Notes under the pieces: generated by a model | The model's input: the letters and a program-made list of their open reading frames with translations, nothing else | Told to the model about the DNA's origin: nothing | The model's database searches: none | Translations under genes and position numbers: made by a program | In this document: in pieces, positions 8,954-52,862 of the stretch | How the letters are laid out: each line of letters begins with the position of its first letter | Numbering within the stretch: the first letter of the stretch is position 1 | From: a virus | Strand: one strand, 5' to 3' | DNA: 64,000 bases | IMG/VR virus record: IMGVR_UViG_3300042375_000862 | Location: 1-64,000 of that record

Positions 8954-8961
8954 TATTTATT
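8954..8961 (+). promoter_or_regulatory. TATTTATT, variant of the recurrent start-proximal motif
   Basis: One mismatch from TATTTATA, 24 nt before the ATG at 8986 in the gap after the 1989-aa gene. Confidence 0.35.
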
Positions 8962-8985
8962 ATAAAAGAAATAAAAATTTAAAAA

Positions 8986-9711
8986 ATGCCAGTATTTTTA
9001 CCAAGTTCTCAAGTTAGTGTACAATTAACAGGAACATCATCAGTACCAAATAATTTTACAGTTGAAATCTATAGATGGGATGTCGCAACTGATGCTGCGG
9101 TTTATGATAGAACCATTGTTACAGGTTTAACTAAAACCGCAACTTCATCGGTAAATGGTGGCACATTACTTAATGGTTATGGAATTTCAGGTATAACAGG
9201 TTTAGATAACTATGTTAAATTAACAAGTACAACCTCATGTAGTACAACTGCAACACAAGACATTACAACGGCAGCATTAACGGTGTATCAACCAAATACA
9301 GGAACATTCACCAACATATATAACGGTTACCCTACAACAGCACAAGTTAATACTTTTAATCAAACAGGTACAGGTTATACATACAATGGGTTTTCGGAAT
9401 CTAATGGAAAGATTGTAGGTAATTACGTTGTTGGTACTTTTGATACTTTATCATATATAGATGCTACAGGTTTTACATTATCTTATGTGAGTGGAACATC
9501 GGGAGGAGTCACAGTTTATGGCGATTATCAATACGGACCATTTAGTAGTTTTTCTATCACTAAATCAGGTAAAACGTTTACATTAACGGGTAGTGCTAAT
9601 ACATCATTAGATTCTGATCCTGTTTCCATAAAAGGAACCATGAGGTTAACACATAACTCAACAACTAATTATGTTGATTTTGATTATTGGTATATTCCTG
9701 CGGCCGTTTAA
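8986..9711 (+). CDS. Virion-block beta-rich protein, unknown (241 aa)
   Basis: No family recognised. The sequence is Thr/Ser/Gly-rich with alternating beta pattern and three TGY/TGF turns, and one Cys. It opens with PVFLPSSQVSVQLTG and ends in a YWYIPAAV strand, consistent with an Ig-like or jelly-roll domain; this is a composition-based guess. It has its own upstream A-rich leader and a TATTTATT motif, so it may begin a transcript. Confidence 0.65.
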   Translation: MPVFLPSSQVSVQLTGTSSVPNNFTVEIYRWDVATDAAVYDRTIVTGLTKTATSSVNGGTLLNGYGISGITGLDNYVKLTSTTSCSTTATQDITTAALTVYQPNTGTFTNIYNGYPTTAQVNTFNQTGTGYTYNGFSESNGKIVGNYVVGTFDTLSYIDATGFTLSYVSGTSGGVTVYGDYQYGPFSSFSITKSGKTFTLTGSANTSLDSDPVSIKGTMRLTHNSTTNYVDFDYWYIPAAV

Positions 9712-9740
9712 TCTATCCCTTTATTTACATTAAATTAATC

Positions 9741-9749
9741 TTTATATTA
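9741..9749 (+). promoter_or_regulatory. TTTATATTA motif
   Basis: Same 9-mer as found before the resolvase gene and before 32308. Here it lies 42 nt upstream of the ATG at 9792 and before a TATTTATA copy. Function not shown. Confidence 0.25.
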
Positions 9750-9767
9750 CCTAAAACCTAATAAAGA

Positions 9768-9775
9768 TATTTATA
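9768..9775 (+). promoter_or_regulatory. TATTTATA motif before 9792 gene
   Basis: Exact copy, 16 nt upstream of the start codon, in an 80-nt gap between virion genes. Confidence 0.45.
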
Positions 9776-9791
9776 GGTGTAAATAATTTAT

Positions 9792-10355
9792 ATGTCAACT
9801 TTTTTTGGAACACTTACTGGATTCACAATTCCATATACGAACATATCGTCAGACACACTAACACCAAATAGTGGTTCGGATTATTTAAATGACTATGAAT
9901 ATAACCCTGCAACGGGTTATACCACAACAGGTTTCACCTATTTAGGTATTGGTGGTAGTAAGTTATCCGAATTAAAAAAATACGGAGCAACAGGATACAC
10001 ACAAACATTAACAAGTGGATCAATAACAGGAGGGACAACTTGGACAGGTTATACATTTGATTATACATACAATACAACTGGTTCCACAAGTTTACAATAT
10101 AGAGATTATTCTGATGGGTACACCATGATTACAGGTAGCACTACGGGGTTTACCAAGGAGGAAGTGATTAACTATACCCTAACAAGAAACGAACATTTCT
10201 TGGGGTTTGTGGAACAACCAACCGTTTATTCGGACATTTTTGTGGAACGAGGTAAATTGGGAGTTATGGAAAGGAACTTCAGGTTAAGTGAAATTGATAG
10301 TATGGGTGAATTGAGTATATATGGAAATGGGTATTTTAAAGTTAGAAAACAATAA
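9792..10355 (+). CDS. Virion-block protein, unknown (187 aa)
   Basis: Rich in Thr-Gly-Tyr turns (ATGYTTTGFTYLG, TGYTFDYTY). The C-terminal third is distinct and charged: VYSDIFVERGKLGVMERNF followed by SEIDSMGELSIYGNGYF. That compact end looks like the conserved functional part. No enzyme motif is visible. Structural role inferred from context. Confidence 0.65.
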   Translation: MSTFFGTLTGFTIPYTNISSDTLTPNSGSDYLNDYEYNPATGYTTTGFTYLGIGGSKLSELKKYGATGYTQTLTSGSITGGTTWTGYTFDYTYNTTGSTSLQYRDYSDGYTMITGSTTGFTKEEVINYTLTRNEHFLGFVEQPTVYSDIFVERGKLGVMERNFRLSEIDSMGELSIYGNGYFKVRKQ

Positions 10356-10361
10356 GATTTA

Positions 10362-10369
10362 TATTTATT
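10362..10369 (+). promoter_or_regulatory. TATTTATT, motif variant before 10381 gene
   Basis: One mismatch from TATTTATA, 11 nt before the ATG. Confidence 0.35.
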
Positions 10370-10380
10370 AATAAAAGAAA

Positions 10381-11289
10381 ATGGCAGTAGGATCATATGG
10401 TATTGTAAGACCCGCAGACGTATCACCAGCAGACGTAGAGATATTATATCATTACGTTTCAGATAGAACTGCGAACGTTACACCAACATTAACAAAATTA
10501 GACTCGACAGCAATATTAACACCGGTGTTTCATAATGAAACGACAGGTGGAGTTGCAAACAAAGAAATTTTAGGTGGATTATATAATTTAAAATTACAAG
10601 CAGGACAATTCTCCGAATTGGGAATTTACACATTACATTTACGTCCTAAACAAGTTAGGACAAATATTATGGATTGTGGAGTTTTAGCTTCACTTCCATC
10701 AGTTAGAGGATTGGTTATTGACATTGGTAATGTACCGGTGGACGACCAAGGAAAATTCACACCACAAGGTTTAGTTGGTTATAGAATTGAATACATTAAT
10801 AATAATAATAATCAAAAAGTTCCAAACTTTTATAGATTGGTAACTTCTTCTTTTTATTGTGTACCAACTACCGCAAATTTATCAAACTCAACAGATAAGG
10901 CAATTAGGTATCAATATACCGATTCCCAATCTAATTTTATATTTTTAACAGTAACACCAAGTTCATCACCATCAAGTAGACCTAATGTGGTTCCATTTAT
11001 CGGCGAACCAGGTCAAACTATTATTTTAACAAATACATTTTTCAACCCAACAACGGTTGAAATTGAAATGGTTGAACATGATGCATCAACATTGGCACAC
11101 GCACTTTACGGTGACCAAACTAAGGCAATTGCTCCAGGTATTTACACAATCTACGATAAGGATAAAAATATCTATAAACAATACAATCTTTACGAAATTA
11201 AAGACCAATTTAATGAGACATTATATGAAGTTCGTGAAGAAAGAACAAGCGTTGATGAAACCTTAAATTTAGATAACATAACAGGATAA
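10381..11289 (+). CDS. Virion-block protein, unknown (302 aa)
   Basis: The N-terminus AVGSYGIVRPADVSPADVEI and a C-terminus with YEVREERTSVDETLNLDN frame a beta-rich body with few cysteines. The protein is less low-complexity than its neighbours, so it may be a folded baseplate or tail component. The stop overlaps the ATG of the 1003-aa gene by one base (ATAATGG), which suggests translational coupling and a shared complex. Function not recognised. Confidence 0.65.
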   Translation: MAVGSYGIVRPADVSPADVEILYHYVSDRTANVTPTLTKLDSTAILTPVFHNETTGGVANKEILGGLYNLKLQAGQFSELGIYTLHLRPKQVRTNIMDCGVLASLPSVRGLVIDIGNVPVDDQGKFTPQGLVGYRIEYINNNNNQKVPNFYRLVTSSFYCVPTTANLSNSTDKAIRYQYTDSQSNFIFLTVTPSSSPSSRPNVVPFIGEPGQTIILTNTFFNPTTVEIEMVEHDASTLAHALYGDQTKAIAPGIYTIYDKDKNIYKQYNLYEIKDQFNETLYEVREERTSVDETLNLDNITG

Positions 11290-14200
11290 TGGCTAAAGTA
11301 AGATATAAAGTTCCAAGTGAAGCTGCTAGTGGTGTAGAAACGTTTAGCGATAAATTAGTTGGTACACAGATTACAGATGGTACTAGTCAACTGACTAATA
11401 CGAACTTTGATATTAATAGAGTCATTCCTGAAAAAGATAGCAAAAATTTTAAATCACAACCATTTTCCGATTTCTTAACATTAAAAGATTTAAAAGAAGA
11501 GTTAAGTGGTGAAACAACACAAAATGGTAGTGTAAAGAAAAAAGAAAAAATTAAATTTAAAGGTGGGATTAACGATGCCGGAAAATCTTTATACGGTTCA
11601 TTAAAACAAAGATTACAAGTATCTATATCAAATATTATCACAAACTTTCCTGCAGCTATATTAGTTGATAAAGATAGTCCCATTAAAAGTATTGACGTAA
11701 CATTATCGGGAATAACTTATAGTGAAAATGCAAAGACAACTGAATTTTACATTCAAAAATCAATTTTATTTAATCCTTTTGATATTACACTTATTAAACC
11801 ATTAAGTAATACTTTACCTAATGTGGATAATACAATTAGAAATTTTTATTCATCATATACAAAATACACCATACAACGTTTAGATAATAGTGAATATAGT
11901 GGTTTAACATATGATATTGTTTCATATACCGAACCTGATAGTTCTAATTTAATTAAATTAAAAGTTAAAGGAAATCCATTTAATGGGTTAACAGGATTTA
12001 CTGAAAATGTTTTAATAAGGCCAAATAATGGAATTACCGAAGAATTTTTTAGTGGGTTAGACGAATTAGAAACTCTTTTATTAAATAGAGAAACTAACCC
12101 AAAATATCAAGCAAGTTTTAAGGTACCGAAAGATAGTTTTGATGAAACTAAAACTGAAATTGTTAATGTATATGTTAATTGGCCAACAACGAAAGATGGT
12201 TGGAATTTACAAATAGTCGGTATTGATTATGCTGATTATATTAGTCAATTAAGTAGTTTAGGTGATGAGATAGATGATTATAAATCTAACTTAATTGTAA
12301 GATTTTTAACAGCACCACAATTATTTGAATTTGATACTGACGACCAAAAGGCACAATCCATCTTTCAATTATATGGTCAATCATTCGATAGAGTAAAAAA
12401 ATATATTGATAATATTGCTTACATGCGTAATGTAAGTTATGATGGAATAAATAATTTTCCTGATATTTTATTGAAGAATCTTTCACAAACATTAGGATTA
12501 TCAACCATTAATTTATTTGATGAAAAATCATTAGAGGATACTTTATACTTAAGACAAGATACTGTGTTTAATGGTATATCATTAGGTAAAACTTTAGTGG
12601 AAGCTGAATATGAATTTTATAGAAGATTATTAGTTAATCTTGCTTACATATATAAATCAAAAGGAACACGAGCGTCTTTGGAATTCTTTTTAAAGTTTAT
12701 CGGAGCTCCCGAACCAATAATTAAAATTAATGAGTTTGTTTATAATGTAACAAAATTACCAAACAACCCTAATTTAGAAACCGATTTATACGACGTAATC
12801 CAAGGAACAAAAGTTGATACAGTAGTTACTGGATATACAATAGGTAGTGGGTTTGAATATACTATGTACGTAAATAGTTCAGGACTTACGGATACAACAT
12901 CGGGATACACATATCTAACTGGATTAACAATAAGTTCATCAACATTAAGTAGAGATGAATATCCAATTGATGAAAATGGATTACCTAGAAAAACAACAAA
13001 TACCCAAAGTGATATATTTTTTGGAAAAGGTTCTGGTTGGTACGATACAACACTTGACCATAGGTCGTCAGATATAATTGATACAAATTTATCAAGCGGG
13101 TCATTTGTAAACGGAGTTTTTCAATTAACAGGTCGAACAAAATATATTAAAACAATGTCAAAACCATACACATATGGTGAAGATTATTTTGACACATTTA
13201 GAACTTTACCTGGATTAGATTATGGGTTTGATTTAACATCAAAAATTGATAATAAAAAAGTTAATGTAAATGACCAACAACTTGTTTTAAATAGAAAAAA
13301 TATTAGTGTCCATTTATCACCATCACAAGGAATTGAATATGACGTTTATAGACAATCAAGAAATTTAGAATTATCCTTTGGAGGTTTAACACCACAAACA
13401 GGTGTAACATTTAATGAATATATTGAAAACATATTAAACACATTGGTGATAAATTCAAATACATCAAAATACGATAAATCATATACTGGTTTAACGGAAG
13501 TATTTAATAGTTACATTACCAACACTAACACAGGATTTACACCATATGATTTCATTTCGATAAATGAATATATAAATAAAATGAGTCCATATTGGGTAAA
13601 AGTGGTTGAACAATTTGTACCAGCGACAACATTATGGACAGGTGGAAATTTAATTTCTAATACAATATTCAATAGATGTAAATATAAATATCAAAAACCA
13701 AGATATGGTTTAACAAATCCAGTTGGTATTGATTACAATGATGATCAATATAACTGTTCAAATCCTATACCACAAACACCTAGACCTACACATACTCCAA
13801 CTAATACACCTACCCCAACTATAACACCTACTAAAACACCTACCAATACCCCTACACCTACCAAAACACCTACCAATACTCCTACACCTACTAAAACACC
13901 AACTAACACACCAACTAATACGGTTACACCAACTAATACACCTACTAATACACCTACAAATACACCTACAAATACATCAACTAATACACCGACACCAACA
14001 CCAACACCAACATCAAACGGTTTGACAAATAATTTGGCCGACATTGGCACGACATGTGATTCAGATGGATGTACAAATGGTACAATTATGAGGATATTCC
14101 TCGATAGTGTAGATTATAATTTATTTGTTGCAAATGGTAATTTATTTAATGGTTTAGGTGGAGGTTCTTCAACAACTTGTACCGCTATAGCTAGAAATAG

Positions 14201-14300
14201 CATTGGTAATCCTATAACAACTAGTTGTTTTATCGATTCGTCTAATACAAGTTGGGAGTTAAATTCGGGAGTATTTAATTACCACATACCACAATGTTAA
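11289..14300 (+). CDS. Probable baseplate/tail protein with C-terminal Thr-Pro stalk (1003 aa)
   Basis: Residues about 340-480 hold an alpha-helical core with DDQKAQSIFQLYGQSFDRV and YKSKGTRASLEFFLKFIGAP, a pattern resembling tail/baseplate wedge proteins of contractile phages (gpI-like). Residues about 830-910 are TPT/TPTKTPT repeats, followed by a Cys-containing C-terminal domain of about 95 residues that may be the exposed part. Identification as baseplate is inference from the helical core and its place among virion genes. It shares the Thr-Pro stalk type with the proteins at 2981, 49135 and 50855. Confidence 0.65.
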   Translation: MAKVRYKVPSEAASGVETFSDKLVGTQITDGTSQLTNTNFDINRVIPEKDSKNFKSQPFSDFLTLKDLKEELSGETTQNGSVKKKEKIKFKGGINDAGKSLYGSLKQRLQVSISNIITNFPAAILVDKDSPIKSIDVTLSGITYSENAKTTEFYIQKSILFNPFDITLIKPLSNTLPNVDNTIRNFYSSYTKYTIQRLDNSEYSGLTYDIVSYTEPDSSNLIKLKVKGNPFNGLTGFTENVLIRPNNGITEEFFSGLDELETLLLNRETNPKYQASFKVPKDSFDETKTEIVNVYVNWPTTKDGWNLQIVGIDYADYISQLSSLGDEIDDYKSNLIVRFLTAPQLFEFDTDDQKAQSIFQLYGQSFDRVKKYIDNIAYMRNVSYDGINNFPDILLKNLSQTLGLSTINLFDEKSLEDTLYLRQDTVFNGISLGKTLVEAEYEFYRRLLVNLAYIYKSKGTRASLEFFLKFIGAPEPIIKINEFVYNVTKLPNNPNLETDLYDVIQGTKVDTVVTGYTIGSGFEYTMYVNSSGLTDTTSGYTYLTGLTISSSTLSRDEYPIDENGLPRKTTNTQSDIFFGKGSGWYDTTLDHRSSDIIDTNLSSGSFVNGVFQLTGRTKYIKTMSKPYTYGEDYFDTFRTLPGLDYGFDLTSKIDNKKVNVNDQQLVLNRKNISVHLSPSQGIEYDVYRQSRNLELSFGGLTPQTGVTFNEYIENILNTLVINSNTSKYDKSYTGLTEVFNSYITNTNTGFTPYDFISINEYINKMSPYWVKVVEQFVPATTLWTGGNLISNTIFNRCKYKYQKPRYGLTNPVGIDYNDDQYNCSNPIPQTPRPTHTPTNTPTPTITPTKTPTNTPTPTKTPTNTPTPTKTPTNTPTNTVTPTNTPTNTPTNTPTNTSTNTPTPTPTPTSNGLTNNLADIGTTCDSDGCTNGTIMRIFLDSVDYNLFVANGNLFNGLGGGSSTTCTAIARNSIGNPITTSCFIDSSNTSWELNSGVFNYHIPQC
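13778..14017 (+). repeat. Thr-Pro repeat tract in baseplate-like protein
   Basis: Roughly 80 codons of TPTNTPT and TPTKTPT, the Lys variant being specific to this gene. Unit length in DNA is 6-12 nt. Confidence 0.85.
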
Positions 14301-14316
14301 TAAAATAAAAAAATAA

Positions 14317-14324
14317 TATTTATA
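14317..14324 (+). promoter_or_regulatory. TATTTATA motif before 14329 gene
   Basis: Exact copy only 4 nt from the start codon, so if it is a -10-like element the message would be leaderless. Confidence 0.45.
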
Positions 14325-14328
14325 ATAT

Positions 14329-15831: not shown

Positions 15832-15855
15832 CGATTTACATTTATTTTAATTTAC

Positions 15856-15864
15856 TTTATATTA
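15856..15864 (+). promoter_or_regulatory. TTTATATTA motif before resolvase gene
   Basis: Lies 5 nt before the ATG at 15870; same 9-mer as at 16499 and 32284. Confidence 0.35.
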
Positions 15865-15869
15865 GAATT

Positions 15870-16481: not shown

Positions 16482-16486
16482 TATTT

Positions 16487-16495
16487 GGCAACTTA
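16487..16495 (+). promoter_or_regulatory. GGCAACTTA motif, first copy
   Basis: Nine bases shared exactly with 19766-19774. Both copies lie just after a stop codon and are followed by T-rich DNA with TTTATC and TTTAATAAT-like runs. Possible promoter element of a non-virion class. Confidence 0.3.
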
Positions 16496-16498
16496 GAT

Positions 16499-16507
16499 TT
16501 TATATTA
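16499..16507 (+). promoter_or_regulatory. TTTATATTA motif upstream of structured RNA element
   Basis: About 35 nt upstream of the hairpin element at 16541-16608; could drive it. Confidence 0.3.
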
Positions 16508-16540
16508 CGATTTATCAATGATATATTTAATAATAGGACG

Positions 16541-16608
16541 GGACAAGGGTTAAAAGCCTTGTTTGGTTGGTAGGAGGTCAGCGTGGTGTCTGGCCTCCAT
16601 TTTTTTTT
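16541..16608 (+). ncRNA. GC-rich two-hairpin element ending in a T-run (candidate small RNA or attenuator)
   Basis: Stem 1: ACAAGG (16543-16548) pairs with CCTTGT (16557-16562). Stem 2: GGAGGTCA (16573-16580) pairs with TGGCCTCC (16591-16598) with one G-U pair and a 10-nt loop, followed by nine T (16600-16608). The GC content is far above the surroundings. It may be only a terminator, but the extra hairpin and upstream TTTATATTA motif allow a short transcript of 70-90 nt. No tRNA fold fits. Confidence 0.5.
16573..16608 (+). terminator. Intrinsic terminator before primase gene
   Basis: Eight-pair stem (one G-U) with 10-nt loop and T9 tail, as described for the overlapping element. Confidence 0.7.
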
Positions 16609-16636
16609 ATAAGATTTTTTTGTTATAATATACAAC

Positions 16637-17578: not shown

Positions 17579-17579
17579 C

Positions 17580-20137: not shown

Positions 20138-20737
20138 ATGATTTTTAATTTCAAAGATTTTGAAGATTTATTTTTAGAGAAATTTATTGCACCAACTTAC
20201 GAACAATGGAAATGTGAAAAAGGTTCAGGTAAAGATATTGTTGGTAAGAATTTTGAATATTTTAATAAATCATTATATACCACGTTTGATTTGCCCATAT
20301 TTGAAGAATCAAAAAAAATCTTAAACACTGAATTCAATCCTGATGTTGTTGTTGGAGAATACTCAAGAATTATTGTTGTTGAAGAAGATAAAGGACATTA
20401 TTTGGATTCAACTTTTATGAAACGTGCAATGGCAAATGCTGGAGAAATAATTTTTGAATGTATAGAACGTAATTACACTATACCATATATTATAATAACT
20501 TGCCCAACTACTTATAATAGATATGATGTTATTTTTAATAAGCAAATAAGATTATTTAATAATGATATTAGAGAAGCGATGAAACAAAAATTAATTTACC
20601 AACCATTATGTTTAAATGACAGAGTACCAGCAAGTAAATATTTTACTTATGGTGGTGAGTCACCATTTAAATTGGATCAAGAATTAGTAGAAAAAAGGAT
20701 AAACTTTATTTATAAAATAAAAAATGAATTTGAATAA
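20138..20737 (+). CDS. Candidate restriction endonuclease, PD-(D/E)XK type (199 aa)
   Basis: A PD-x13-ExK signature is visible: P68-D69 in NPDVVVGEY, then strand RIIVVEEDK with E83 and K85. It overlaps the following DNA methyltransferase by 14 nt, the classic gene order of a type II restriction-modification pair. No sequence family was recognised beyond this. The pair interrupts the gp47-gp46 region. It could instead be a solitary or homing-type nuclease; cleavage specificity cannot be read from sequence. Confidence 0.5.
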   Translation: MIFNFKDFEDLFLEKFIAPTYEQWKCEKGSGKDIVGKNFEYFNKSLYTTFDLPIFEESKKILNTEFNPDVVVGEYSRIIVVEEDKGHYLDSTFMKRAMANAGEIIFECIERNYTIPYIIITCPTTYNRYDVIFNKQIRLFNNDIREAMKQKLIYQPLCLNDRVPASKYFTYGGESPFKLDQELVEKRINFIYKIKNEFE

Positions 20738-21464: not shown

Positions 21465-23793
21465 TCCATTTATAAAAGTAACATGGGAAGATGTTCCCGA
21501 AAATTTCACCCCTGAGAAAATCAGAAGGGTGAAATCTTATTTTGAGAAAAAATATAATGCAAAGACAGTTCAAGTAATCACTAAAACATTAACTAGTGTT
21601 AATCAAACACGATTAGAATCGTTAGAGGCTTCCGATAATATCTTAGACCACCAATATCAAAAGAAATTAATGAAAGATTTCATTAAGGACAATGAAATTG
21701 ATATTAAATGGGAATTGGTTGATAGGTTGGATAATAAAGTTAATATTCAAATTGATAAGTTAAATGAAAACAAAGTTAGATATAATAAATGGTATATTAG
21801 AAAAGTGGAGTTTTCTAATTTTCTATCATTCGGAGATAATAACGTTATTGATTTTACTGGGTTGGACGGTATTACGGTAATCGAATCTACACCAAAGAAC
21901 TTCGGTGGTAAATCTACATCTTCAGTAGACCTTTTAATGTTCTTATTTTTTAATACAACAACAAAGACAAAAACTAACGGTGAAATTTTTAATAGATTTA
22001 CCGATAAGAACGATGTGAGTGTTCGTGGTGAAATTACTATTGATGGTGACGATTATGTTATTGAAAGAAAGACATCTCGTAAGATGGGTAAGTCTGGTGA
22101 GTACACCGTTAAGAATGAATTGGAGTTTTATAAAAAAACTGAAGATGGTGAAATTGTAAATTTATCTGGTGAACAAAGAAGAGAAACTGAAGTGTTTATA
22201 TCTTCGGCAATTGGAACGGAAGAAGATTTCTTATCAACTATATTAACTACTGGTTATAACTTGGAAGAATTAATTGAATCCAAACCAACCGCTCGTGGAC
22301 AAATTTTAACAAAGTTCATGGGATTGGAAAACTTAAAAATTAAAGAAGAACTTGCAAAAGAAATTTATAACGATTGGGGTAAGAAATTGGTGTCCAACAC
22401 ATATAACAAAGTTAGTTTAGAATCTGATAATGAAACGTACAAAGAAAGTATTACCAATTCGGAAAGTGAGATTGTAAAATTAACAAAAGAATTAGGTAAG
22501 TTTGAAAAAGATTTAGAGAAGTTAGAAAAGAAAAGGGACGATGTATTCTTAAAAAGAAATAATGACGTCGATAAAGAATTACTGAATACAAATCCAACTT
22601 TATTACAAAGAGAAGTTACTTTTCTATTAACTCAAAAAAACGTAAGTCAAACAAACGCCGACGGAGTTAGTGTTGTTGAACCATCACAATTCTATGATGA
22701 AGATCAACACAAAGAGTTAAAAGGTGAAATGGCAAATCTTCAAGGAATTGATGTTGTATCCAAATATGAAAAGACCCAAAGAGAAAAATTAATCAAACAA
22801 TTTGAAGAAGGAACAGTTTGCCCTACTTGTAATCGTGCGTTAGATGAGGTTGACCACACAGATGAAATTGAAAAGATTAAAAAAGAAATTGAAGACATCA
22901 TAAAGGAAATGGAATTAAATCAAATACAGTTTGATTTATTAAAAGAACAATCGGAAGGGTTTGATAAATTAAAAACTGAATTTGAAAGTTACGAAAGAAA
23001 TAAACTTCGTAAGGAAAGATATGAGTTAGAGATTGAACAAAAACAATTAGAGATTGACGGTAAACAAAAAAGATTAGATAATTACGAAAGTAATAAAAAG
23101 AAACTTGAGGAGAATCAAAAGATTGATGCGGAAGTGATTGCACTTAAAACTAAAATTGAAACAGCAAACGGAGACATTAGACAGACAAACACTAACATTG
23201 AAAAACACACCAATAACATTTCAAATATGAATGGTAAGGTTGGTATCAATGAGGAGTTAATTAAAAAGATTACGGCGGAGGAAGAATTGGCTGCCGTGTT
23301 TAAGATTTATTTAACCGTTTATGGTAAAAACGGAATATCTAAAATCATTCTTAAAAATATGATTCCATTAATCAATCAGGAATTGTATCGTTTGTTAGTG
23401 GATAGTTGTCATTTCATTTTAGAGATGAATATAAATGATAAGAATGAGGTTGAATTTATAATGATAGATACAGAGACCCGAATCGTTAAACCCCTTAATG
23501 CGGGGTCTGGTTATGAAAGAACCATATCCTCATTGGCACTTCGTAGTGTATTAACTAAAATATCTTCATTACCTAAACCTAACATTGTGGTTATGGATGA
23601 GGTGTTCGGTAAAATTGCTGACGAGAACTTGGAAATGGTCGGTGAATTCTTTAAAAAGATTAAAAATTACTTTGACCATATACTTGTCATATCACACAAT
23701 TCTTTAATACGTAATTGGTCTGATAATATTGTTATGATTAAGAAAGAAGAAAATGTTTCATCCATAGATTTTATCACAACAAAAATTTCTTAG
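21457..23793 (+). CDS. sbcC: SbcC/Rad50-like ATPase (T4 gp46 homologue) with N-terminal extension
   Basis: SMC-type ATPase of the recombination nuclease. Walker A is at about 146-154 (PKNFGGKSTS), a long coiled coil follows, the zinc hook CPTCNRAL is near 456, the signature LNAGSGYERTISSLALRS lies near 690 and Walker B IVVMDEVFGK near 710. At 778 aa it is longer than T4 gp46 (560 aa), with about 108 extra N-terminal residues (TWEDVPENFTPEKIRRVKSYF) of unknown role. No in-frame ATG exists before residue 70, so the start is a TTG overlapping the methyltransferase stop. Confidence 0.9.
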   Translation: MTNPFIKVTWEDVPENFTPEKIRRVKSYFEKKYNAKTVQVITKTLTSVNQTRLESLEASDNILDHQYQKKLMKDFIKDNEIDIKWELVDRLDNKVNIQIDKLNENKVRYNKWYIRKVEFSNFLSFGDNNVIDFTGLDGITVIESTPKNFGGKSTSSVDLLMFLFFNTTTKTKTNGEIFNRFTDKNDVSVRGEITIDGDDYVIERKTSRKMGKSGEYTVKNELEFYKKTEDGEIVNLSGEQRRETEVFISSAIGTEEDFLSTILTTGYNLEELIESKPTARGQILTKFMGLENLKIKEELAKEIYNDWGKKLVSNTYNKVSLESDNETYKESITNSESEIVKLTKELGKFEKDLEKLEKKRDDVFLKRNNDVDKELLNTNPTLLQREVTFLLTQKNVSQTNADGVSVVEPSQFYDEDQHKELKGEMANLQGIDVVSKYEKTQREKLIKQFEEGTVCPTCNRALDEVDHTDEIEKIKKEIEDIIKEMELNQIQFDLLKEQSEGFDKLKTEFESYERNKLRKERYELEIEQKQLEIDGKQKRLDNYESNKKKLEENQKIDAEVIALKTKIETANGDIRQTNTNIEKHTNNISNMNGKVGINEELIKKITAEEELAAVFKIYLTVYGKNGISKIILKNMIPLINQELYRLLVDSCHFILEMNINDKNEVEFIMIDTETRIVKPLNAGSGYERTISSLALRSVLTKISSLPKPNIVVMDEVFGKIADENLEMVGEFFKKIKNYFDHILVISHNSLIRNWSDNIVMIKKEENVSSIDFITTKIS

Positions 23794-23809
23794 TTTCAAA
23801 TATCTTAAT

Positions 23810-23817
23810 TATATTTG
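23810..23817 (+). promoter_or_regulatory. Bacteroidetes-type -7 element before clpP
   Basis: TATATTTG fits the TAnnTTTG consensus exactly and lies 23 nt before the ATG. A clear TTG -33 element is missing (TTTC at about the right place), so strength is uncertain. Confidence 0.4.
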
Positions 23818-24547: not shown

Positions 24548-24555
24548 TATTTATA
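24548..24555 (+). promoter_or_regulatory. TATTTATA motif before 24569 gene
   Basis: Exact copy directly after the clpP terminator and 13 nt before the next ATG, a natural place for a promoter. Confidence 0.5.
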
Positions 24556-25903: not shown

Positions 25904-26350
25904 ATGAATACATACGTATTATTTATTTTTGGTATGTTCGATGACCATGAGGATATCGAGTATTTTTGTACTGATGTTATAGGTGAAAGCAAGGTCATCA
26001 AATCAATTAGATTCATTATAGAAAATTCAGAGAATATAATAGTAATATTTGATTCTGAAATGGAACCAATAGAGGTCGACCGAGAATTATATACAATATT
26101 AATTGACGAACATATTAAATTTTATTTCTTATTCCAAAGAGAAAATATGGTCACGGCTCATCTACCCCAACAAATCAAAGATTTAATTTTCACCCCAACT
26201 ATTGATAATACGATTATTAGGGTAGATTATGAGAAAAATAAAAAAAGGGAAACTTTAGATTTAGACAGATTACTTGAAAAAATAGAAGAATCTGGAATTG
26301 AGAGCCTTACAATAGAAGAAAAAAACTTCCTTGACAATTTTGAAAATTAA
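25904..26350 (+). CDS. Unknown protein with DUF6576-like C-terminal motif (148 aa)
   Basis: The N-terminal 100 residues are a mixed alpha/beta domain (TYVLFIFGMFDDHEDIEYF) without recognised motif. The last 30, LDRLLEKIEESGIESLTIEE then KNFLDNF, match the short terminal motif found at the end of many Bacteroidetes rhomboid-like and other proteins (DUF6576). This supports a Bacteroidetes origin. Its 3' end contains the -33 element of the sigma-factor promoter. Confidence 0.6.
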   Translation: MNTYVLFIFGMFDDHEDIEYFCTDVIGESKVIKSIRFIIENSENIIVIFDSEMEPIEVDRELYTILIDEHIKFYFLFQRENMVTAHLPQQIKDLIFTPTIDNTIIRVDYEKNKKRETLDLDRLLEKIEESGIESLTIEEKNFLDNFEN

Positions 26351-26360
26351 GATATATTTC
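26331..26360 (+). promoter_or_regulatory. Bacteroidetes-type promoter of the sigma-factor gene
   Basis: TTG (26331-26333, within TTGACA), a 19-nt spacer, then TATATTTC (26353-26360). This matches the TTG-N19-TAnnTTTG consensus with one mismatch and lies 38 nt upstream of the ATG, partly inside the previous ORF. The host polymerase could read it early in infection. Confidence 0.55.
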
Positions 26361-26398
26361 ATATCTTAGTACTATCCATCCACTTAAACTTACACCAC

Positions 26399-27214
26399 AT
26401 GAAAAAATCCATTTTAGTTAATCCAGACGAGATTCAATTGTATATCAAAGATTTACGAAAAATTCCTGTAATGTCACATCAAAGACAGGAAGAAGTTTTT
26501 GAATTATTAAACAATAAAAAAACAGATAAAGAAACTAGAGGAAAACTTTATAATGAATTGGTTGTTGGTAATTTAAGATTTGTAATATCTGTGGCTAAAA
26601 TGTTTCAAAATCAGGGAATGGATTTGTTGGACATTATTTCAGAAGGTAATATTGGTTTAATTAAAGCGGCGGAAAGATTTGACCCGACGACTGGTTTAAA
26701 ATTTATTTCATACGCGGTGTGGTGGGTTAGACAATCAATAATGGCATCTCTAAATGAAAACTGTAGAACAATTCGTATACCTTCAAATTTAGTACAAGAT
26801 GCTCAAAAACAAAAGAAAATTGAAATAAGTGAAGAAGATAATTTCTTCATAAACAATGTTGAAGATGAAACACCAATCGGTGTTAATCTCCCATACTGTA
26901 TTGGTTTATATAAAGAAATTAATGAAGATGGTGACCAATTAATTGATGTTATACCTAATAGAGAGGCTGAAAGTCCTGACGCCATTCTTAATTCACCGGA
27001 AGAAATAAAGAAAAAAGTTTCAGCAATGTTAAGTGTGTTGGATGATAGAGAAAAAATAATCATTGAAAGATATTATGGGTTAACGGGTATAGAATCTAAC
27101 TTGGAAGATTTAGGTGAGGAGTTTGGTTGTACTAAAGAACGTATAAGACAATTACGTGATAAGGCTATTAAGAAACTAAGAAACGAAAGTTTTGGTCTCT
27201 TAAACTATTTATAA
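26399..27214 (+). CDS. RpoD-like sigma-70 factor
   Basis: Complete group 1/2-type sigma, 271 aa. Region 1.2 (DEIQLYIKDLRKIPVM), region 2 (GNLRFVISVAKMFQNQGMD; LKFISYAVWWVRQSI, the core-binding and -10 recognition helices), a reduced acidic region 3, and region 4 helix-turn-helix (EDLGEEFGCTKERIRQLRDKAIKKL). It closely resembles the short RpoD of Bacteroidetes, so it was probably acquired from a host. It likely redirects polymerase to phage promoters such as the TATTTATA or TTTATATTA sites; which class is unknown. Confidence 0.9.
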   Translation: MKKSILVNPDEIQLYIKDLRKIPVMSHQRQEEVFELLNNKKTDKETRGKLYNELVVGNLRFVISVAKMFQNQGMDLLDIISEGNIGLIKAAERFDPTTGLKFISYAVWWVRQSIMASLNENCRTIRIPSNLVQDAQKQKKIEISEEDNFFINNVEDETPIGVNLPYCIGLYKEINEDGDQLIDVIPNREAESPDAILNSPEEIKKKVSAMLSVLDDREKIIIERYYGLTGIESNLEDLGEEFGCTKERIRQLRDKAIKKLRNESFGLLNYL

Positions 27215-30148: not shown

Positions 30149-30993
30149 TGAAGTACCTTAAACCAAATATTGACCATGAGTGGATGGAAGCACTTCGTTA
30201 CCGTGAATTTGAAAAAATGGGTAAGGATGGTTGGAAAGATATTGCATCAAACGATTACGATATTACCAATTACAATAAGATTAAAGATGTGTTAAAGAAT
30301 GTTGATTTAGATTTTGACACATTAGAAGACGAAAAAAAGGAAAGATTTAATAAAGCATTTAAAAAGGGTAAAGTAGAAATACCAATGGTGGTTAAATTTG
30401 GGGATAATGATTATCATCTTTTAGGTGGTAATACAAGATTGGCGGGATTAATTGACAAAGGGATTAACCCAAAATTGTGGGTTGTGAATATGACAAAAAA
30501 GAAAAAGGAAGAGGTTAAAGAAACTGGTGCAGACTCTTCAGGATCATTTAGTGGTCCTTTGTTTGGTAAATCAAAAGTGGTTAAAAGACCAATTTCAAGT
30601 ATACCTAATCTAAACCTTACTGAAGAGGAAGAGATTAAAGAAGTGACCGCAGGTGACGCTGGACAATTTGATGTTCCGGCATTTGGTAAAACAACTAAAG
30701 GTGGACGTAAAAATCCATTAAAAATAGACGGACCTAAAAGTATCTACAAAGGTAGAGCGGTTACAGATAGGAATTTCCCTAAATGGGGAGGTCCTGATAG
30801 TGTTTTTGTAAAAGTTAAAGAGAAGTGTAAGAAATTCCCTTATTGTAACCAAGGTGACACTGGTGCAATTGAATTCATACACGAAGACGATGAATTACAA
30901 GAATCCATTAAGGAAATATCAAAAAAATACGGAATTCTACATAAAGATGTGGAAAATATCGTATTAAATGAGATTAACAAGATATTTATTTAA
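30148..30993 (+). CDS. Protein with ParB/Srx-like motif and a duplicated GADSSG-type peptide (281 aa)
   Basis: I chose ATG 30148, coupled to the previous stop, over an upstream GTG. An N-terminal segment VVKFGDNDYHLLGGNTRLAGL resembles the ParB/sulfiredoxin nuclease-like core (G-x-H-L-GGNTRL). Two related peptides follow, VKETGADSSGSFSGPLFGKS and IKEVTAGDAGQFDVPAFGKT, then a GGRKNPL segment and a helical C-terminus. Such repeats may be assembly or cleavage signals. Function inferred only as DNA- or prohead-associated. Confidence 0.55.
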   Translation: MKYLKPNIDHEWMEALRYREFEKMGKDGWKDIASNDYDITNYNKIKDVLKNVDLDFDTLEDEKKERFNKAFKKGKVEIPMVVKFGDNDYHLLGGNTRLAGLIDKGINPKLWVVNMTKKKKEEVKETGADSSGSFSGPLFGKSKVVKRPISSIPNLNLTEEEEIKEVTAGDAGQFDVPAFGKTTKGGRKNPLKIDGPKSIYKGRAVTDRNFPKWGGPDSVFVKVKEKCKKFPYCNQGDTGAIEFIHEDDELQESIKEISKKYGILHKDVENIVLNEINKIFI

Positions 30994-36533: not shown

Positions 36534-36541
36534 TATTTATA
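36534..36541 (+). promoter_or_regulatory. TATTTATA motif before AAA ATPase gene
   Basis: Exact copy, 8 nt from the ATG at 36550. Confidence 0.4.
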
Positions 36542-38283: not shown

Positions 38284-38291
38284 TATTTATC
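38284..38291 (+). promoter_or_regulatory. TATTTATC, motif variant at the head of the fibre cluster
   Basis: One mismatch from TATTTATA, 20 nt before the ATG at 38312 and just after the terminator. Confidence 0.4.
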
Positions 38292-42058: not shown

Positions 42059-42064
42059 TAAGAA

Positions 42065-44646: not shown

Positions 44647-44667
44647 AACAAAACAAACACAAAGTAG

Positions 44668-49050: not shown

Positions 49051-49070
49051 AAGTAGAATAAAAATTAACA

Positions 49071-49099
49071 AGGAGGACTCAAAAAGTCCTCCTTTTTTT
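49071..49099 (+). terminator. Intrinsic terminator after 1460-aa fibre
   Basis: Perfect 9-bp stem AGGAGGACT / AGTCCTCCT with CAAAA loop and a T-run. Confidence 0.9.
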
Positions 49100-49120
49100 A
49101 TCCATAAAGACAATATAATA

Positions 49121-49128
49121 TATTTATA
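49121..49128 (+). promoter_or_regulatory. TATTTATA motif before 49135 gene
   Basis: Exact copy right after a terminator and 6 nt before the ATG, so a leader longer than a few nucleotides is impossible if this is a -10-like box. Confidence 0.5.
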
Positions 49129-49134
49129 GTTTAT

Positions 49135-50829
49135 ATGGGTATATTATTTAATAAAATTAAGATAGTTCCAAACTCAAATGTAACACCAACTCCTACACCA
49201 AGTGTAACTCCTACAGTTACACCAACAAATACTATTACACCAACTCCTAGTGTTACACCAACGAATACCACAACATCGACACCAACAGTTACACCAACAC
49301 CTACGGTTACACCAACGAGTTCCGTTACGCCAACCAATACAGTTACACCGACACCATCATCAACTCCAAATATAATAACAAATGGATTGGTTATTCAATT
49401 AGACGCATATAATAATTCAAGTTATCCTGGTACAGGAACAACAGTTTACGATGTAACAAGTGGATATAATCATACATTAATTGGTGCGACTTACACAGTT
49501 CTTAATGGTATAAAATGTTTTGATTGTACGACAGGGAATAATAGAGTTGATTACAACGCAACAGGACCTACGTTACCAACAACAGGGTACACATATATTA
49601 CTTGGACAAGATTGATGACAAGTAATCCTTCATCGTTTAGAACATTACTTTACACAAAAGGATCTACTAAAATCACACCAATTACTATACCTAATGCATC
49701 AAACACATTAGGATATTGGGCAACAGGATTCGTAAGTTCAGGGTATGATGTTTCAGCTTCAAATGGTGTTTGGGTTCAATTTGCGGTAGTTGGAACTAAC
49801 TCATCTCAAAAATTCTACATAAATGGTTCACAGGTGGGAAGCACAATCAATGAGGGTTCGGGTGGAAATACACATTGGGGATTGGGTAATAATGATGTTG
49901 TTGCTCAACCTTGGGGACATGTTGCCAACATGTATTTTTACAACAGACAATTAAATCTTGCTGAAATAACGGAACAATACAATTATTTGGCACCAAGATT
50001 TGTGGAACCAACTCCAACACCTACCGTTACACCTACGCCGACGGTTACGAATACTCCTACACCTACCGTTACACCAACGAACACATCAACTGTTACTCCA
50101 ACACCTACTGTAACAACATCGTCAGCAATACAACCTGTGTCAAATTCTTATTTTTATTATGATCCAGGTAATGTTTCAAGTTACGTAAGTGGAACTACAT
50201 TATATGACTTATCGGGTAATAATAGAAATGCAACGATAAGTAATAGCCCAACATATACTTCAGGTGTTGGTGGTTATTTCACATTTGATGGTGTAAATGA
50301 TTATATCACAAGTCCAAACTCATATAACGCGGGTAATACTGCACATACACTTGAAATATGGATAAGACCAACTGCGGTTGATGATTGTTTATGGTCAGAT
50401 ACGGGAGATCAAACTCCAAATTCGGGTTATCATTATGCGGGTGGTCAAATATTTCAAACCGGGCCAGTTCAATCAATAATTTCTAATATATATAATCAAA
50501 CTAATGGTGTTCAAAGAGTGGTTAATGGTGCTGCAACATATCTTAATAATTGGATTCAAGTTGTTAAAACATATAGTGGTACCACATTAACAGGTTATAT
50601 AAACGGCACTGCTGGTACCCCATCTACAATAAATTGGTATCCACCTTGGGTTCAAATTGCAAATTCATGGTATATGCATTTTGGGGCAATAGATACTACA
50701 ACATATAATGCGTCAACTGCCGGTTATTTTGCTGGTCGTTATGGAATAATAAGATTTTATAATAGAGCATTAACATCAACTGAAGTTTTACAAAACTTTA
50801 ATTCGGATAAAACAAAATACGGATTATAA
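49135..50829 (+). CDS. Adhesin with two LamG-like domains on Thr-Pro stalks (564 aa)
   Basis: A short basic N-terminus, then a TPT stalk (about 15-80), a first concanavalin/LamG-like domain (GLVIQLDAYNNSSYPGTGTT to IYFYNRQLNLAEITEQYNY; note MYFYNRQL), a second stalk (about 292-328) and a second LamG-like domain (YDPGNVSSYVSGTTLYDLSG, YFTFDGVNDYI, IIRFYNRALTSTEVLQNF). The LDG/FDGVNDYI and FYNRAL-S-EV signatures are typical of the fold, which binds glycans. Likely a receptor-binding protein. Confidence 0.8.
   Translation: MGILFNKIKIVPNSNVTPTPTPSVTPTVTPTNTITPTPSVTPTNTTTSTPTVTPTPTVTPTSSVTPTNTVTPTPSSTPNIITNGLVIQLDAYNNSSYPGTGTTVYDVTSGYNHTLIGATYTVLNGIKCFDCTTGNNRVDYNATGPTLPTTGYTYITWTRLMTSNPSSFRTLLYTKGSTKITPITIPNASNTLGYWATGFVSSGYDVSASNGVWVQFAVVGTNSSQKFYINGSQVGSTINEGSGGNTHWGLGNNDVVAQPWGHVANMYFYNRQLNLAEITEQYNYLAPRFVEPTPTPTVTPTPTVTNTPTPTVTPTNTSTVTPTPTVTTSSAIQPVSNSYFYYDPGNVSSYVSGTTLYDLSGNNRNATISNSPTYTSGVGGYFTFDGVNDYITSPNSYNAGNTAHTLEIWIRPTAVDDCLWSDTGDQTPNSGYHYAGGQIFQTGPVQSIISNIYNQTNGVQRVVNGAATYLNNWIQVVKTYSGTTLTGYINGTAGTPSTINWYPPWVQIANSWYMHFGAIDTTTYNASTAGYFAGRYGIIRFYNRALTSTEVLQNFNSDKTKYGL
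49180..50120 (+). repeat. Two Thr-Pro stalk tracts
   Basis: About 49180-49370 and 50008-50120, TPT and VTPTPT units flanking the first LamG-like domain. Confidence 0.8.
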
Positions 50830-50839
50830 AAAATAAAAG

Positions 50840-50847
50840 TATTTATA
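50840..50847 (+). promoter_or_regulatory. TATTTATA motif before 50855 gene
   Basis: Exact copy, 7 nt before the ATG. Confidence 0.45.
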
Positions 50848-50854
50848 TAACATA

Positions 50855-52795
50855 ATGGCAACAACAAGACCCTTCGCATACAACACAGGATCCACCATAG
50901 ATGGAACAACACAAATTGGAAACATCGCAATAGGTGTTTCAGAACAAGATTATTCACAAAATCCAGGTGGGGTTAAATGGTGGATGGGACCTGATGAAGA
51001 GTTAGGTTATGTTATTGCCAACCAAGTACCAACGGGAAATCATCCAACACCGACAGATGAGGATTCATATATTAATTTCTGGAGATCAACAGATTTAACA
51101 GAACAATCTTTATTAGAGTTATTAAACGTTTTACCAATAACAGATGGTTTAGAACCATTTACAAATGCAACTGATGCTAAAACTTGGTTAAATGATAATG
51201 GTCATTTCACATCATATGGTGAAGGTGCACCACCTCCAACCCCAACACCAACTATTACACCAACTGCAACAGTCACACCAACTCCAACATCTAGTGAAAT
51301 AATTCCTGATACACCTACACCAACACCTACCAATACTACAACACCAACACCAACTAATACTCCAACAGAAACACCTACGAATACACCAACTCCAACTCCA
51401 ACTGATTCGAGTTCAATAACTACATACACAATTTCAGGATGTACTAATCTAAATGTTTTAGTTGTCGATTTAGGACCAGGATTTATAGTTCTTGGAGATG
51501 TAAACTATTACACATTCACAGGAGCAACACCAAGTGGGTGTTATTCAGTCATTGGTAAGATAAATGCTCCGATAGACGACGCGTTTACCACATCATTTGG
51601 AACTGGTGGATGTAATGATTGTGAGAGTACTTATATAACTCCAACCCCAACTCCTACGAATACCGAAACTCCTACTCCTACTCCTACAGAAACTGAAGTA
51701 TTAACACCAACTCCTACGAATACCGAAACTCCTACTCCTACTCCAACAAATACACCAACAAATACGGTAACACCAAGTATCACACCAACTAACACACCTA
51801 CCAATACACCAACACCAACAATAACACCGACAGCAACATCAATGACGACTAATGTAATTGTTGCTGCGGGTGCTGTAAACGTATTAAGTTATTCATATGA
51901 TGGTGGTGATAATTGGACAAATTCATCTAATGGTGCCACATTTATAACCCAACCGGCACTTGCCGTTGCAACTGATGGAAATATATTTGTTGCAGGAGGA
52001 ACTGCAGGTGGAGGTAATTCAAATGCTTTACTTTGGTCTTCTGATGGAAATACATGGTCGGGATCAACAAATGGTTCATCCATGTTTACAACAAATGTTA
52101 GAGGTATAGGATATGGAGGAGATAAATGGGTTGCGGTCGGTATTTCATCAGGCGCCGCCAAATTTGCATATTCAACAGATGGTATAACTTGGACAGCGGC
52201 ATCAAATTCGAATGTAATTGGTAGTGTACCAAATACTGTGGCATATAATGGAAGTAGATGGGTTGCGGTAGGTTCATCACCTGCTGGTGGTACTGGAAAT
52301 AGAACAACAATAGCATATTCAGATGATGGTATATCTTGGACGGCATCCGCAAACAGTGGTACAATATTTACAGGATCATGTAATAATGTAGTTTGGGGTG
52401 GTGATAAATGGGTTGCAGTTGGTACAGGTGCAAATAGAATCGCATATTCATCAGACGGCATAACATGGACAGGTTCAACAAGTGGAAATAGCAGAATCTC
52501 AGGTACTGGTTATGGTATATCATATAATGGTTCACAATGGGTTGCCGCAGGACAAGGTACAAACGCATTGGCATATTCATCTGATGGTATAACATGGTCG
52601 GGATCTACAAACGGAAACACAATATTCTCATTCTCGGCGTTAAGTGTAACTTGGGCCGGTACTAAATGGGTTGCGGGCGGTGTAGGAGGACCAAATCAAT
52701 TGGCAACATCAACCGACGGTTTAACTTGGTCAGCAACAACAAATGGTAATACCATAATGAACAATAGAGTTAACTCAATAGCCGCAAAATATTAA
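50855..52795 (+). CDS. Adhesin with Thr-Pro stalks and a seven-bladed Asp-box propeller (646 aa)
   Basis: N-terminal attachment domain ([36 protein letters not shown], residues 1-125). A first stalk (about 128-188) leads to a Cys-containing Ig-like domain and a second stalk (about 262-330). The C-terminal 310 residues carry seven S-x-DG-x-[TSN]-W motifs ([41 protein letters not shown] twice, TSTDGLTW), the Asp-box pattern of BNR/sialidase-type propellers. No catalytic Arg triad or Glu/Tyr pair is evident, so binding rather than cleavage is inferred. Confidence 0.8.
51237..51845 (+). repeat. Two Thr-Pro stalk tracts with a 60-bp direct repeat
   Basis: About 51237-51410 and 51639-51845. Within the second, the segment starting CCAACTCCTACGAATACC at 51647 recurs at 51707, 60 bp apart, as an exact copy for about 38 bases. 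Confidence 0.8.
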
Positions 52796-52813
52796 CAATA
52801 AATAAAAACATTC

Positions 52814-52842
52814 AAGGAGACCGTAAAAAAGTCTCCTTTTTT
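52814..52842 (+). terminator. Intrinsic terminator after propeller adhesin
   Basis: Stem AAGGAGAC (52814-52821) with GTCTCCTT (52831-52838), 9-nt loop, then a T-run. Confidence 0.85.
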
Positions 52843-52854
52843 ATTTATTAAATG

Positions 52855-52862
52855 TATTTATA
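52855..52862 (+). promoter_or_regulatory. TATTTATA motif before structured leader
   Basis: Exact copy, 60 nt before the ATG at 52923, the only copy with a long leader. Confidence 0.5.

What the first reader, a model, noticed from the sequence alone, without database searches (positions are those of the whole stretch)
8954..52862. TATTTATA motif placed 4-60 nt before start codons across virion and other operons
Nine exact copies (9768, 14317, 24548, 35633, 36534, 44639, 49121, 50840, 52855) and three one-base variants (8954, 10362, 38284) precede start codons, several right after terminators. In five cases only 4-8 nt separate it from the ATG, leaving room only for leaderless or near-leaderless messages, or implying a non-Shine-Dalgarno translation signal. 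It is the reverse complement of the T4 late box TATAAATA, so orientation differs from T4. Chance occurrence in AT-rich DNA must be tested.
Basis: partly seen in the sequence, partly recalled or inferred. Interest (0 to 1): 0.7.

Follow-up and report, generated by a model that had tools for sequence, protein, structure and literature searches.

The report
Phage late-gene promoter beside start codons
A short DNA word, TATTTATA, sits just ahead of many genes in a group of large viruses that probably infect Bacteroidota bacteria; it looks like the virus's own promoter, read by a sigma factor the virus carries, and it often lies so close to the gene that the message would begin at or next to the start codon.

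Summary
Over the window TATTTATA is at expectation (17 vs 14.8). Within 45 nt of starts it is the most enriched 8-mer: 75 of 618 dereplicated starts in 104 records, shuffles mean 11.1, maximum 24; TATAAATA is not enriched (13 vs 13.3). It favours operon heads (60/228 vs 6/241) and four families in the virion-type region over replication families (53/87 vs 3/173). Bacteroidota genes do not show it (3 of 650). A sigma70-family factor is encoded in this phage and in all 7 relatives tested. AT-rich patches near -18 and -28 match published Flavobacterium promoters, favouring DNA over RNA. With the published box-to-start distance (4-5 nt), the commonest spacer, 4 nt, puts the transcript start on the ATG. 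Best reading: a late-type promoter without a visible -35 element, read by the phage sigma on host RNA polymerase, giving many leaderless or near-leaderless mRNAs. Recognition by that sigma, transcript starts and timing are inferred. It is not a T4-type promoter, nor a translation signal of the host. New variant of a known kind.

The parts
9768..9775 (+). TATTTATA, 16 nt before gene 9792 (187 aa, no family match)
   Evidence: family 21 of 47 exact, 20 of them at 16 nt
14317..14324 (+). TATTTATA, 4 nt before gene 14329 (500 aa, unnamed)
   Evidence: family of 81 members: 62 exact, 56 of them at 4 nt
20707..20714 (+). TATTTATA, 9 nt before gene 20724 (DNA methyltransferase), overlapping the 3' end of gene 20138
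   Evidence: family 3 of 8 exact; methyltransferase
24548..24555 (+). TATTTATA, 13 nt before ORF 24569 (112 aa), after a terminator-like hairpin
   Evidence: this ORF was dropped by my ORF caller and is not in the counts
27206..27213 (+). TATTTATA, 4 nt before gene 27218, overlapping the stop codon of the sigma gene
   Evidence: family 8 of 18 exact; overlap seen in L056, L069, L086, L101, L102
35633..35640 (+). TATTTATA, 5 nt before gene 35646 (NusG-like)
   Evidence: family 8 of 21 exact; NusG
36534..36541 (+). TATTTATA, 8 nt before gene 36550 (AAA ATPase)
   Evidence: family 5 of 21 exact; AAA
44639..44646 (+). TATTTATA, 21 nt before gene 44668 (1460 aa, not searched against families)
49121..49128 (+). 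TATTTATA, 6 nt before gene 49135 (matches a virion structural family), after a terminator-like hairpin
50840..50847 (+). TATTTATA, 7 nt before gene 50855
52855..52862 (+). TATTTATA, 60 nt before gene 52923 (tail-fibre-like), after a terminator-like hairpin
   Evidence: outside the 45-nt window used for counting
8954..8961 (+). variant TATTTATT, 24 nt before gene 8986
   Evidence: family 25 of 28 exact TATTTATA
10362..10369 (+). variant TATTTATT, 11 nt before gene 10381
   Evidence: family 16 of 54 exact, 53 of 54 within one mismatch
30983..30990 (+). variant TATTTATT, 5 nt before gene 30996
   Evidence: family 7 of 21 exact, all 7 at 5 nt
38284..38291 (+). variant TATTTATC, 20 nt before gene 38312 (tail-fibre-like)
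26399..27214 (+). phage sigma70-family factor, 271 aa; regions 2 and 4 by Pfam; proposed to read TATTTATA
26339..26369 (+). host-type promoter-like TTTG-N19-TATCTTAG, 29 nt before the sigma gene
   Evidence: sigma family 7 of 13 distinct upstreams with TTTG and at most one mismatch in the -7 box, shuffle mean 0.4, maximum 4
23786..23817 (+). host-type promoter-like TTTC-N20-TATATTTG, 23 nt before the protease gene 23841
   Evidence: family 18 of 21 distinct upstreams, shuffle mean 0.3, maximum 2

Best explanation
TATTTATA is the core (about -12 to -5) of a late-type promoter in a clade of large phages that probably infect Bacteroidota. The phage makes a sigma factor related to the Bacteroidota primary sigma; this directs host RNA polymerase to TATTTATA without a visible -35 element. 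The sigma gene and a protease gene are themselves preceded by host-type TTTG/TAnnTTTG promoters, so host sigma would start the programme and phage sigma would take over. At many genes the box lies 3-8 nt before the ATG, so transcription would start on or next to the start codon and give leaderless or near-leaderless mRNAs. Shown by computation: enrichment, specificity, orientation, gene class, conservation, phased AT-rich patches, presence of the sigma gene. Inferred: recognition by that sigma, exact transcript starts, timing, host.
For: Most enriched 8-mer, 75 of 618 starts vs 11.1. Of its 24 one-base variants only two exceed the maximum of 60 shuffles: TAGTTATA 11 vs 2.8 and TCTTTATA 7 vs 2.6. 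Operon heads 60/228 (gap 20-160 nt) vs 6/241 (gap under 10 nt). Families 8986, 9792, 10381, 14329 53/87 vs replication families 3/173 distinct upstreams. Spacer histogram: 0 at 0-2 nt, 2 at 3, 21 at 4, then a tail; other AT-only 8-mers show no such edge. GC falls at -28..-26 and -20..-17 (0.095 vs 0.243 between; one site per family, 54 families; median Wilcoxon p 1e-5; AT-only control words 0.26 vs 0.287); F. johnsoniae promoters have AT-rich motifs centred at -18 and -28 and 4 or 5 nt from box to start (PMC6847099 section 14). Sigma70 region 4 over cut-off in 8 of 8 records; best solved relatives are primary sigmas. Motif above the shuffle maximum in all five sigma-identity bins, 49-100% identity. 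Not enriched in Bacteroidota genes (3 of 650 vs 3.6) nor in the stretches examined of crAss001 (0/42), FCL-2 (0/60), phi14:2 (0/53). RNA polymerase model PF00623: 0 of 11 records.
Against: No transcript start has been mapped. Sigma and motif are linked only by co-occurrence; I found no relative lacking the sigma to serve as contrast, and did not check whether the three control phages carry a sigma. In 54 sites with spacers of 12-32 nt purines peak at nt 4, 6 and 8 after the box, not at nt 5, so the start position is not settled. Two starts break the 3-nt minimum: one at 1 nt, one at 2 nt. Terminator-like hairpins are not enriched upstream. The positions tested were set, though they match the published ones. 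NusG-like, AAA and methyltransferase genes also carry the box, and the four families with the most boxes have no named function, so 'late' rests on neighbourhood. TATTTATA is the top 8-mer in two of five sigma bins, fourth in one, and outside the top 12 in two; in the 45-54% bin ATATTTAT (19 vs 3.2) and TATTTATT (17 vs 3.4) rank higher.
Confidence: 0.72

Rival explanations
1. An RNA-level signal: UAUUUAUA in the leader is bound or cut by a phage protein (translational regulator or RNase), or helps ribosomes of a host without Shine-Dalgarno signals.
For: Close to the ATG and in sense; only 3 of 50 window starts have a Shine-Dalgarno match of four or more bases; the flanks are A-rich.
Against: Spacer ranges from 3 to over 30 nt; starts within 10 nt of the previous gene rarely have it (6 of 241); phased AT-rich patches lie further upstream; Bacteroidota genes do not show it (3 of 650).
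Confidence: 0.12
2. A promoter, but read by the host's own primary or alternative sigma, perhaps with a phage co-activator; the phage sigma serves other promoters.
For: The box keeps T-12, A-11, T-8 and T-6 of the host box TAHHTTTG and the AT-rich patches of host promoters; no direct link of phage sigma to the box was tested.
Against: Not enriched before Bacteroidota genes, where TAHHTTTG is (72 of 650 vs 12.1); host-type boxes were not found at families 14329, 9792, 8986 (0 of 45, 0 of 15, 0 of 13).
Confidence: 0.12
3. Chance or AT-rich composition of short intergenic stretches.
For: The whole-window count is at expectation (17 vs 14.8).
Against: 75 vs at most 24 in 50 shuffles of the same upstream stretches; 45.2 vs 4.3 with one start per family; reverse complement not enriched; box and 4-nt spacer kept in 56 of 81 members of family 14329 while the DNA around differs.
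Confidence: 0.01

Closest known systems
phiEco32 middle/late promoters (tAATGTAtA, phage sigma phi32_gp36) and phage 7-11 late promoters (PMC8948821; abstract and passages seen)
   Same: Phage-encoded sigma on host RNA polymerase; in phiEco32 a single-element promoter without -35, start 6-8 bp downstream; early promoters read by host sigma.
   Different: Other sequence, other presumed host phylum; phi32_gp36 is described there as lacking homology to region 4, ours has region 4; leaderless is not mentioned in that text (0 occurrences).
T4 late promoter TATAAATA with gp55, gp33 and clamp gp45 (PMC1524935 passages)
   Same: AT-only 8-base box near -10, no -35, upstream of virion genes.
   Different: Other strand sense; sigma with region 4; T4 spacers 14-28 nt against a mode of 4 nt here; no clamp found with two Pfam models.
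Bacteroidota sigmaA promoter TTTG/TAHHTTTG (PMC6847099 section 14 and passages; PMC9723704 passages)
   Same: Box register assumed alike; AT-rich patches at -18 and -28; the sigma resembles Bacteroidota primary sigmas.
   Different: Box differs at -7 and -5; no TTTG at -33 seen; host leaders are mostly longer (87% over 10 nt in F. johnsoniae; 5.5% leaderless in F. psychrophilum).
Late promoters of giant phages with their own RNA polymerases (AR9; phiKZ TATG with start at G; PMC5312081 passages)
   Same: Phage-specific late promoters; that paper remarks that phage transcripts are often leaderless, so leaderless phage mRNA as such is not new.
   Different: Those are read by phage multisubunit RNA polymerases; none was found here.

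Membership tests
Phage sigma factor with cognate late promoter | Phage genome encodes a sigma factor | tested here: met
   Sigma70_r4 over cut-off in 8 of 8 records; r2 and r4 in the window protein
Phage sigma factor with cognate late promoter | A shared motif upstream of late genes, distinct from the host promoter | tested here: met
   lateness inferred from neighbourhood
Phage sigma factor with cognate late promoter | The phage sigma initiates at the motif | not testable with these tools
   needs in vitro transcription
T4 late promoter | TATAAATA in sense upstream of late genes | tested here: not met
   13 vs 13.3 expected; same test positive in T4
T4 late promoter | gp55-type sigma and sliding clamp gp45 | tested here: inconclusive
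   Sigma is of another type; clamp models PF02916 and PF00712 0 of 11 records, but T4 was not among the controls and a divergent clamp would be missed
Bacteroidota sigmaA promoter | TAHHTTTG with TTTG at -33 | tested here: not met
   0 of 45, 0 of 15, 0 of 13 distinct upstreams of families 14329, 9792, 8986
Bacteroidota sigmaA promoter | AT-rich patches centred at -18 and -28 | tested here: met
   against PMC6847099 section 14
Bacteroidota non-SD translation signal | Present before ordinary Bacteroidota genes | tested here: not met
   3 of 650 starts vs 3.6 expected
Promoters of phage multisubunit RNA polymerases (phiKZ, AR9) | Phage-encoded RNA polymerase | tested here: not met
   PF00623 0 of 11 records; PF00562 0 of 1; a very divergent polymerase would be missed
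Leaderless mRNA | Transcript starts at the start codon | not testable with these tools
   predicted from spacers and the published box-to-start distance

The most novel reading that the evidence does not exclude
A clade of large Bacteroidota phages took over a host primary sigma, reduced its region 3, and changed its target from TAnnTTTG to a -35-less TATTTATA placed so that transcription starts on the start codon; later in infection the phage would run largely on leaderless or near-leaderless mRNAs in a host that seldom makes them, a switch of translation mode written into the promoter.
Probability: 0.35. Interest if true: 0.8.

Novelty: new variant of a known kind. Interest (0 to 1): 0.6.

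Why it matters
It gives a testable early-to-late switch for a group of large uncultured phages seen in many metagenomes: a defined promoter word, a defined sigma gene and predicted transcript starts. If the leaderless prediction holds, it ties the choice of transcription start to translation in a phylum without Shine-Dalgarno signals. TATTTATA plus the sigma gene would also help to call expression classes in metagenomic phages that cannot yet be grown.

Tried and rejected
Whole-window counting told nothing. RNA polymerase and sliding clamp models found nothing. A terminator association was looked for and not found (6/60 vs 14/146). A preferred +1 base was looked for; purines peak at nt 4, 6 and 8 after the box and do not settle the start. 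TAHHTTTG alone is not clearly enriched in these phages (31 vs 22, shuffle maximum 38); the bipartite TTTG-N17-23-TAHHTTTG is (8 vs 0.63, maximum 3). With an exact -7 box the sigma family shows no host-type promoter (0 of 13); the 7 of 13 need one mismatch, and one of the 13 upstreams is from a truncated ORF (L102). ORF 20138 was considered as a gp55-like sigma and dropped (no Pfam match at E 0.5). No -35 element showed in the logos. Paper searches for TATTTATA with promoter and phage, leaderless and late promoters and sigma factors of Flavobacterium or Bacteroidota phages listed nothing that, from title and abstract, describes this motif; one search listed 20 of 155; the library holds open-licence papers only.

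The region names of sigma (1.2, 2.4, 3) are placed from memory. That region 3 is reduced rests on the alignment with 27 of the 80 cellular sigmas fetched and on Pfam listing only regions 2 and 4; host sigmas were not run through Pfam as a control.
Full report
WHAT THE WINDOW IS. The window is bases 1-64000 of a 144,039-base virus record with tail-fibre-like proteins, a head maturation protease, primase, SbcC/SbcD-like genes and a NusG-like protein. Of 50 listed starts, 3 have a Shine-Dalgarno match of four or more bases. Two scans of viral contigs gave 100 related loci (best 80 kept of 135; 20).

IS THE MOTIF REAL. The total in the window is what chance gives (17 vs 14.8); the signal is in where they lie. 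I called ORFs (ATG, at least 80 aa, 100 nt upstream at hand) in 104 records, the window and three stretches of its record included: 1490 starts, 618 after dropping starts that share a 24-mer with one already kept. TATTTATA lies within 45 nt of 75 of them, against a mean of 11.1 and a maximum of 24 in 50 dinucleotide shuffles, and is the most enriched 8-mer; TATAAATA is at expectation, 13 vs 13.3. In the own genome it is 10 of 115 starts vs 1.84 (maximum 6 of 500). With one start per protein family, 275 families, it is 45.2 vs 4.3. The caller dropped ORF 24569, and the 45-nt limit leaves out the 52855 site. Of the 24 one-base variants, two exceed the maximum of 60 shuffles (TAGTTATA 11 vs 2.8, TCTTTATA 7 vs 2.6); changes of the last base are weak (TATTTATT 23 vs 14.3).

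WHERE IT LIES. Upstream of the 500-aa gene 14329 the box is exact in 62 of 81 family members, 56 of them with the 4-nt spacer, while the DNA around it differs. Other families: 8986 25/28, 9792 21/47, 10381 16/54; replication and recombination families 15870 3/79, 16637 1/77, 17580 0/73, 18434 0/66, 21670 0/44; the gene 11289, directly behind 10381, has 0/67. On distinct upstreams the first four families have 53/87 and the five replication families 3/173, Fisher p 3.5e-28 without correction for kinship. The four families have no named function and are placed by neighbourhood; named genes with a box nearby are 49135 (virion structural family), 52923 and, with a variant box, 38312 (tail-fibre-like). 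NusG-like, AAA ATPase and methyltransferase genes also carry it. Starts with a 20-160 nt gap to the previous gene have it in 60 of 228, with 10-20 nt in 5 of 44, with under 10 nt in 6 of 241, with 160-1000 nt in 3 of 63; 42 starts had no usable gap.

PROMOTER OR RNA SIGNAL. Three results favour DNA. First, the spacer varies from 3 to over 30 nt and stops sharply at the short end: 0 at 0-2 nt, 2 at 3, 21 at 4; other AT-only 8-mers show no such edge. Two starts outside that set, at 1 nt and 2 nt, break the rule. Second, aligned on the box with its first T as -12, GC falls at -28..-26 and -20..-17 and returns to background between (126 sites from 1324 pooled starts). With one site per family, 54 families, it is 0.095 against 0.243, median p 1e-5; in 25 wholly intergenic families 0.091 against 0.229, p 0.002; AT-only control words 0.26 against 0.287. 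I set these positions, but they agree with the AT-rich motifs at -18 and -28 reported for Flavobacterium johnsoniae (PMC6847099 section 14). Third, Bacteroidota genes do not show the box (3 of 650 starts vs 3.6) though they show TAHHTTTG (72 vs 12.1); nor do the stretches examined of crAss001 (50,000 of 102,679 bases, 0 of 42 starts), FCL-2 (whole, 0 of 60) and phi14:2 (50,000 of 100,418, 0 of 53). The same script finds TATAAATA in T4 (11 of 44 vs 0.54). T4 also gave 5 TATTTATA (vs 0.41); all lie at three divergent gene pairs that have TATAAATA too.

WHO READS IT. Against 27 of those 80 loci the 14 phage proteins lack most of a block between regions 2 and 4 and differ at 30 columns that are at least 90% uniform in each group, while FISYAVWW is shared. 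All 8 records tested have the gene. In 80 loci holding this sigma (best 80 of 591, some on contigs already used above), TATTTATA exceeds the shuffle maximum in every identity bin: 19 vs 4.0, 31 vs 5.3, 9 vs 2.8, 6 vs 0.3, 10 vs 2.9. It is the top word in the 66-75% and 54-60% bins, fourth in the 75-100% bin (behind TATATTTG and two others) and outside the top 12 in the other two; in the 45-54% bin ATATTTAT (19 vs 3.2) and TATTTATT (17 vs 3.4) rank higher, so the word may shift with the sigma. RNA polymerase model PF00623 matched 0 of 11 records. I infer that this sigma, on host polymerase, reads the box; nothing here shows it directly.

A TWO-STEP PROGRAMME. Upstream of the sigma gene, 7 of 13 distinct sequences have TTTG, N18-22 and a TAHHTTTG box with at most one mismatch (shuffle mean 0.4, maximum 4; with an exact box 0 of 13). 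Upstream of protease gene 23841, 18 of 21 have an exact TAHHTTTG with at most one mismatch in TTTG (0.3, maximum 2). Families 14329, 9792 and 8986 have neither. TTTG/TAHHTTTG is the published host promoter (PMC6847099), so host-type promoters for sigma and protease and TATTTATA elsewhere look like a sigma cascade. One TATTTATA overlaps the sigma stop codon, 4 nt before the next gene, and recurs in relatives, though the conserved protein end constrains those bases too. The Bacteroidota host is inferred from these promoters, the sigma and the lack of Shine-Dalgarno matches.

LEADERLESS MESSAGES. F. johnsoniae boxes lie 4 or 5 nt before the start and 87% of leaders exceed 10 nt (PMC6847099); 5.5% of mapped F. 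psychrophilum mRNAs are leaderless (PMC9723704 passages). If the phage box works in the same register, a 4-nt spacer puts +1 on the A of ATG. Of 126 sites with spacers of 3-32 nt, 33 have 4 or less, 56 have 8 or less and 88 have 14 or less. The modal spacer is 3-4 nt in 17 of 55 families. The exact +1 is not settled: purines peak at nt 4, 6 and 8 after the box. One paper remarks that phage transcripts are often leaderless (PMC5312081 passage), so that part alone would not be new.

COMPARISON. It works like the phiEco32 system (phage sigma, single-element promoter; PMC8948821 passages). It is not a T4 late promoter: other strand sense, other type of sigma, other spacing. It is not an ordinary Bacteroidota sigmaA promoter, though it shares that architecture. 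I rate it a new variant of a known kind.

Noticed in passing
window 16530-16605: Between the RuvC-like and primase genes lies AATAGGACGGGACA, TTTGGTTGGT and a strong hairpin with loop TGGTGT and a T run. In 28 of the first 34 distinct relatives examined TGGTGT is kept while stems differ; the upstream words were seen in several but not counted. No Rfam match at E 1. Possibly an uncharacterised small RNA or a special terminator.
   Followed up: partly
window 26399-27214: The phage sigma seems to lack most of region 3 and has relatives in phage contigs down to 49% identity.
   Followed up: partly
window 2981-8950, 11289-14300, 49135-50829, 50855-52795: Four large proteins match the same uncharacterised family phrog_15511.
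   Followed up: no
L002:3044-5845 and L002:6615-8063: Two proteins (933 and 482 aa) match radical SAM families.
   Followed up: no
L003 and L004 (record 92-129 kb): Nucleotide-sugar epimerase, Nol-like carbamoyltransferase, 2OG-Fe oxygenase and several glycosyltransferases, perhaps for modification of DNA or surfaces.
   Followed up: no
L257-L273 region of sigma identity 45-54%: In the most diverged sigma bin the enriched words are ATATTTAT and TATTTATT rather than TATTTATA, as if the box had shifted with the sigma.
   Followed up: no
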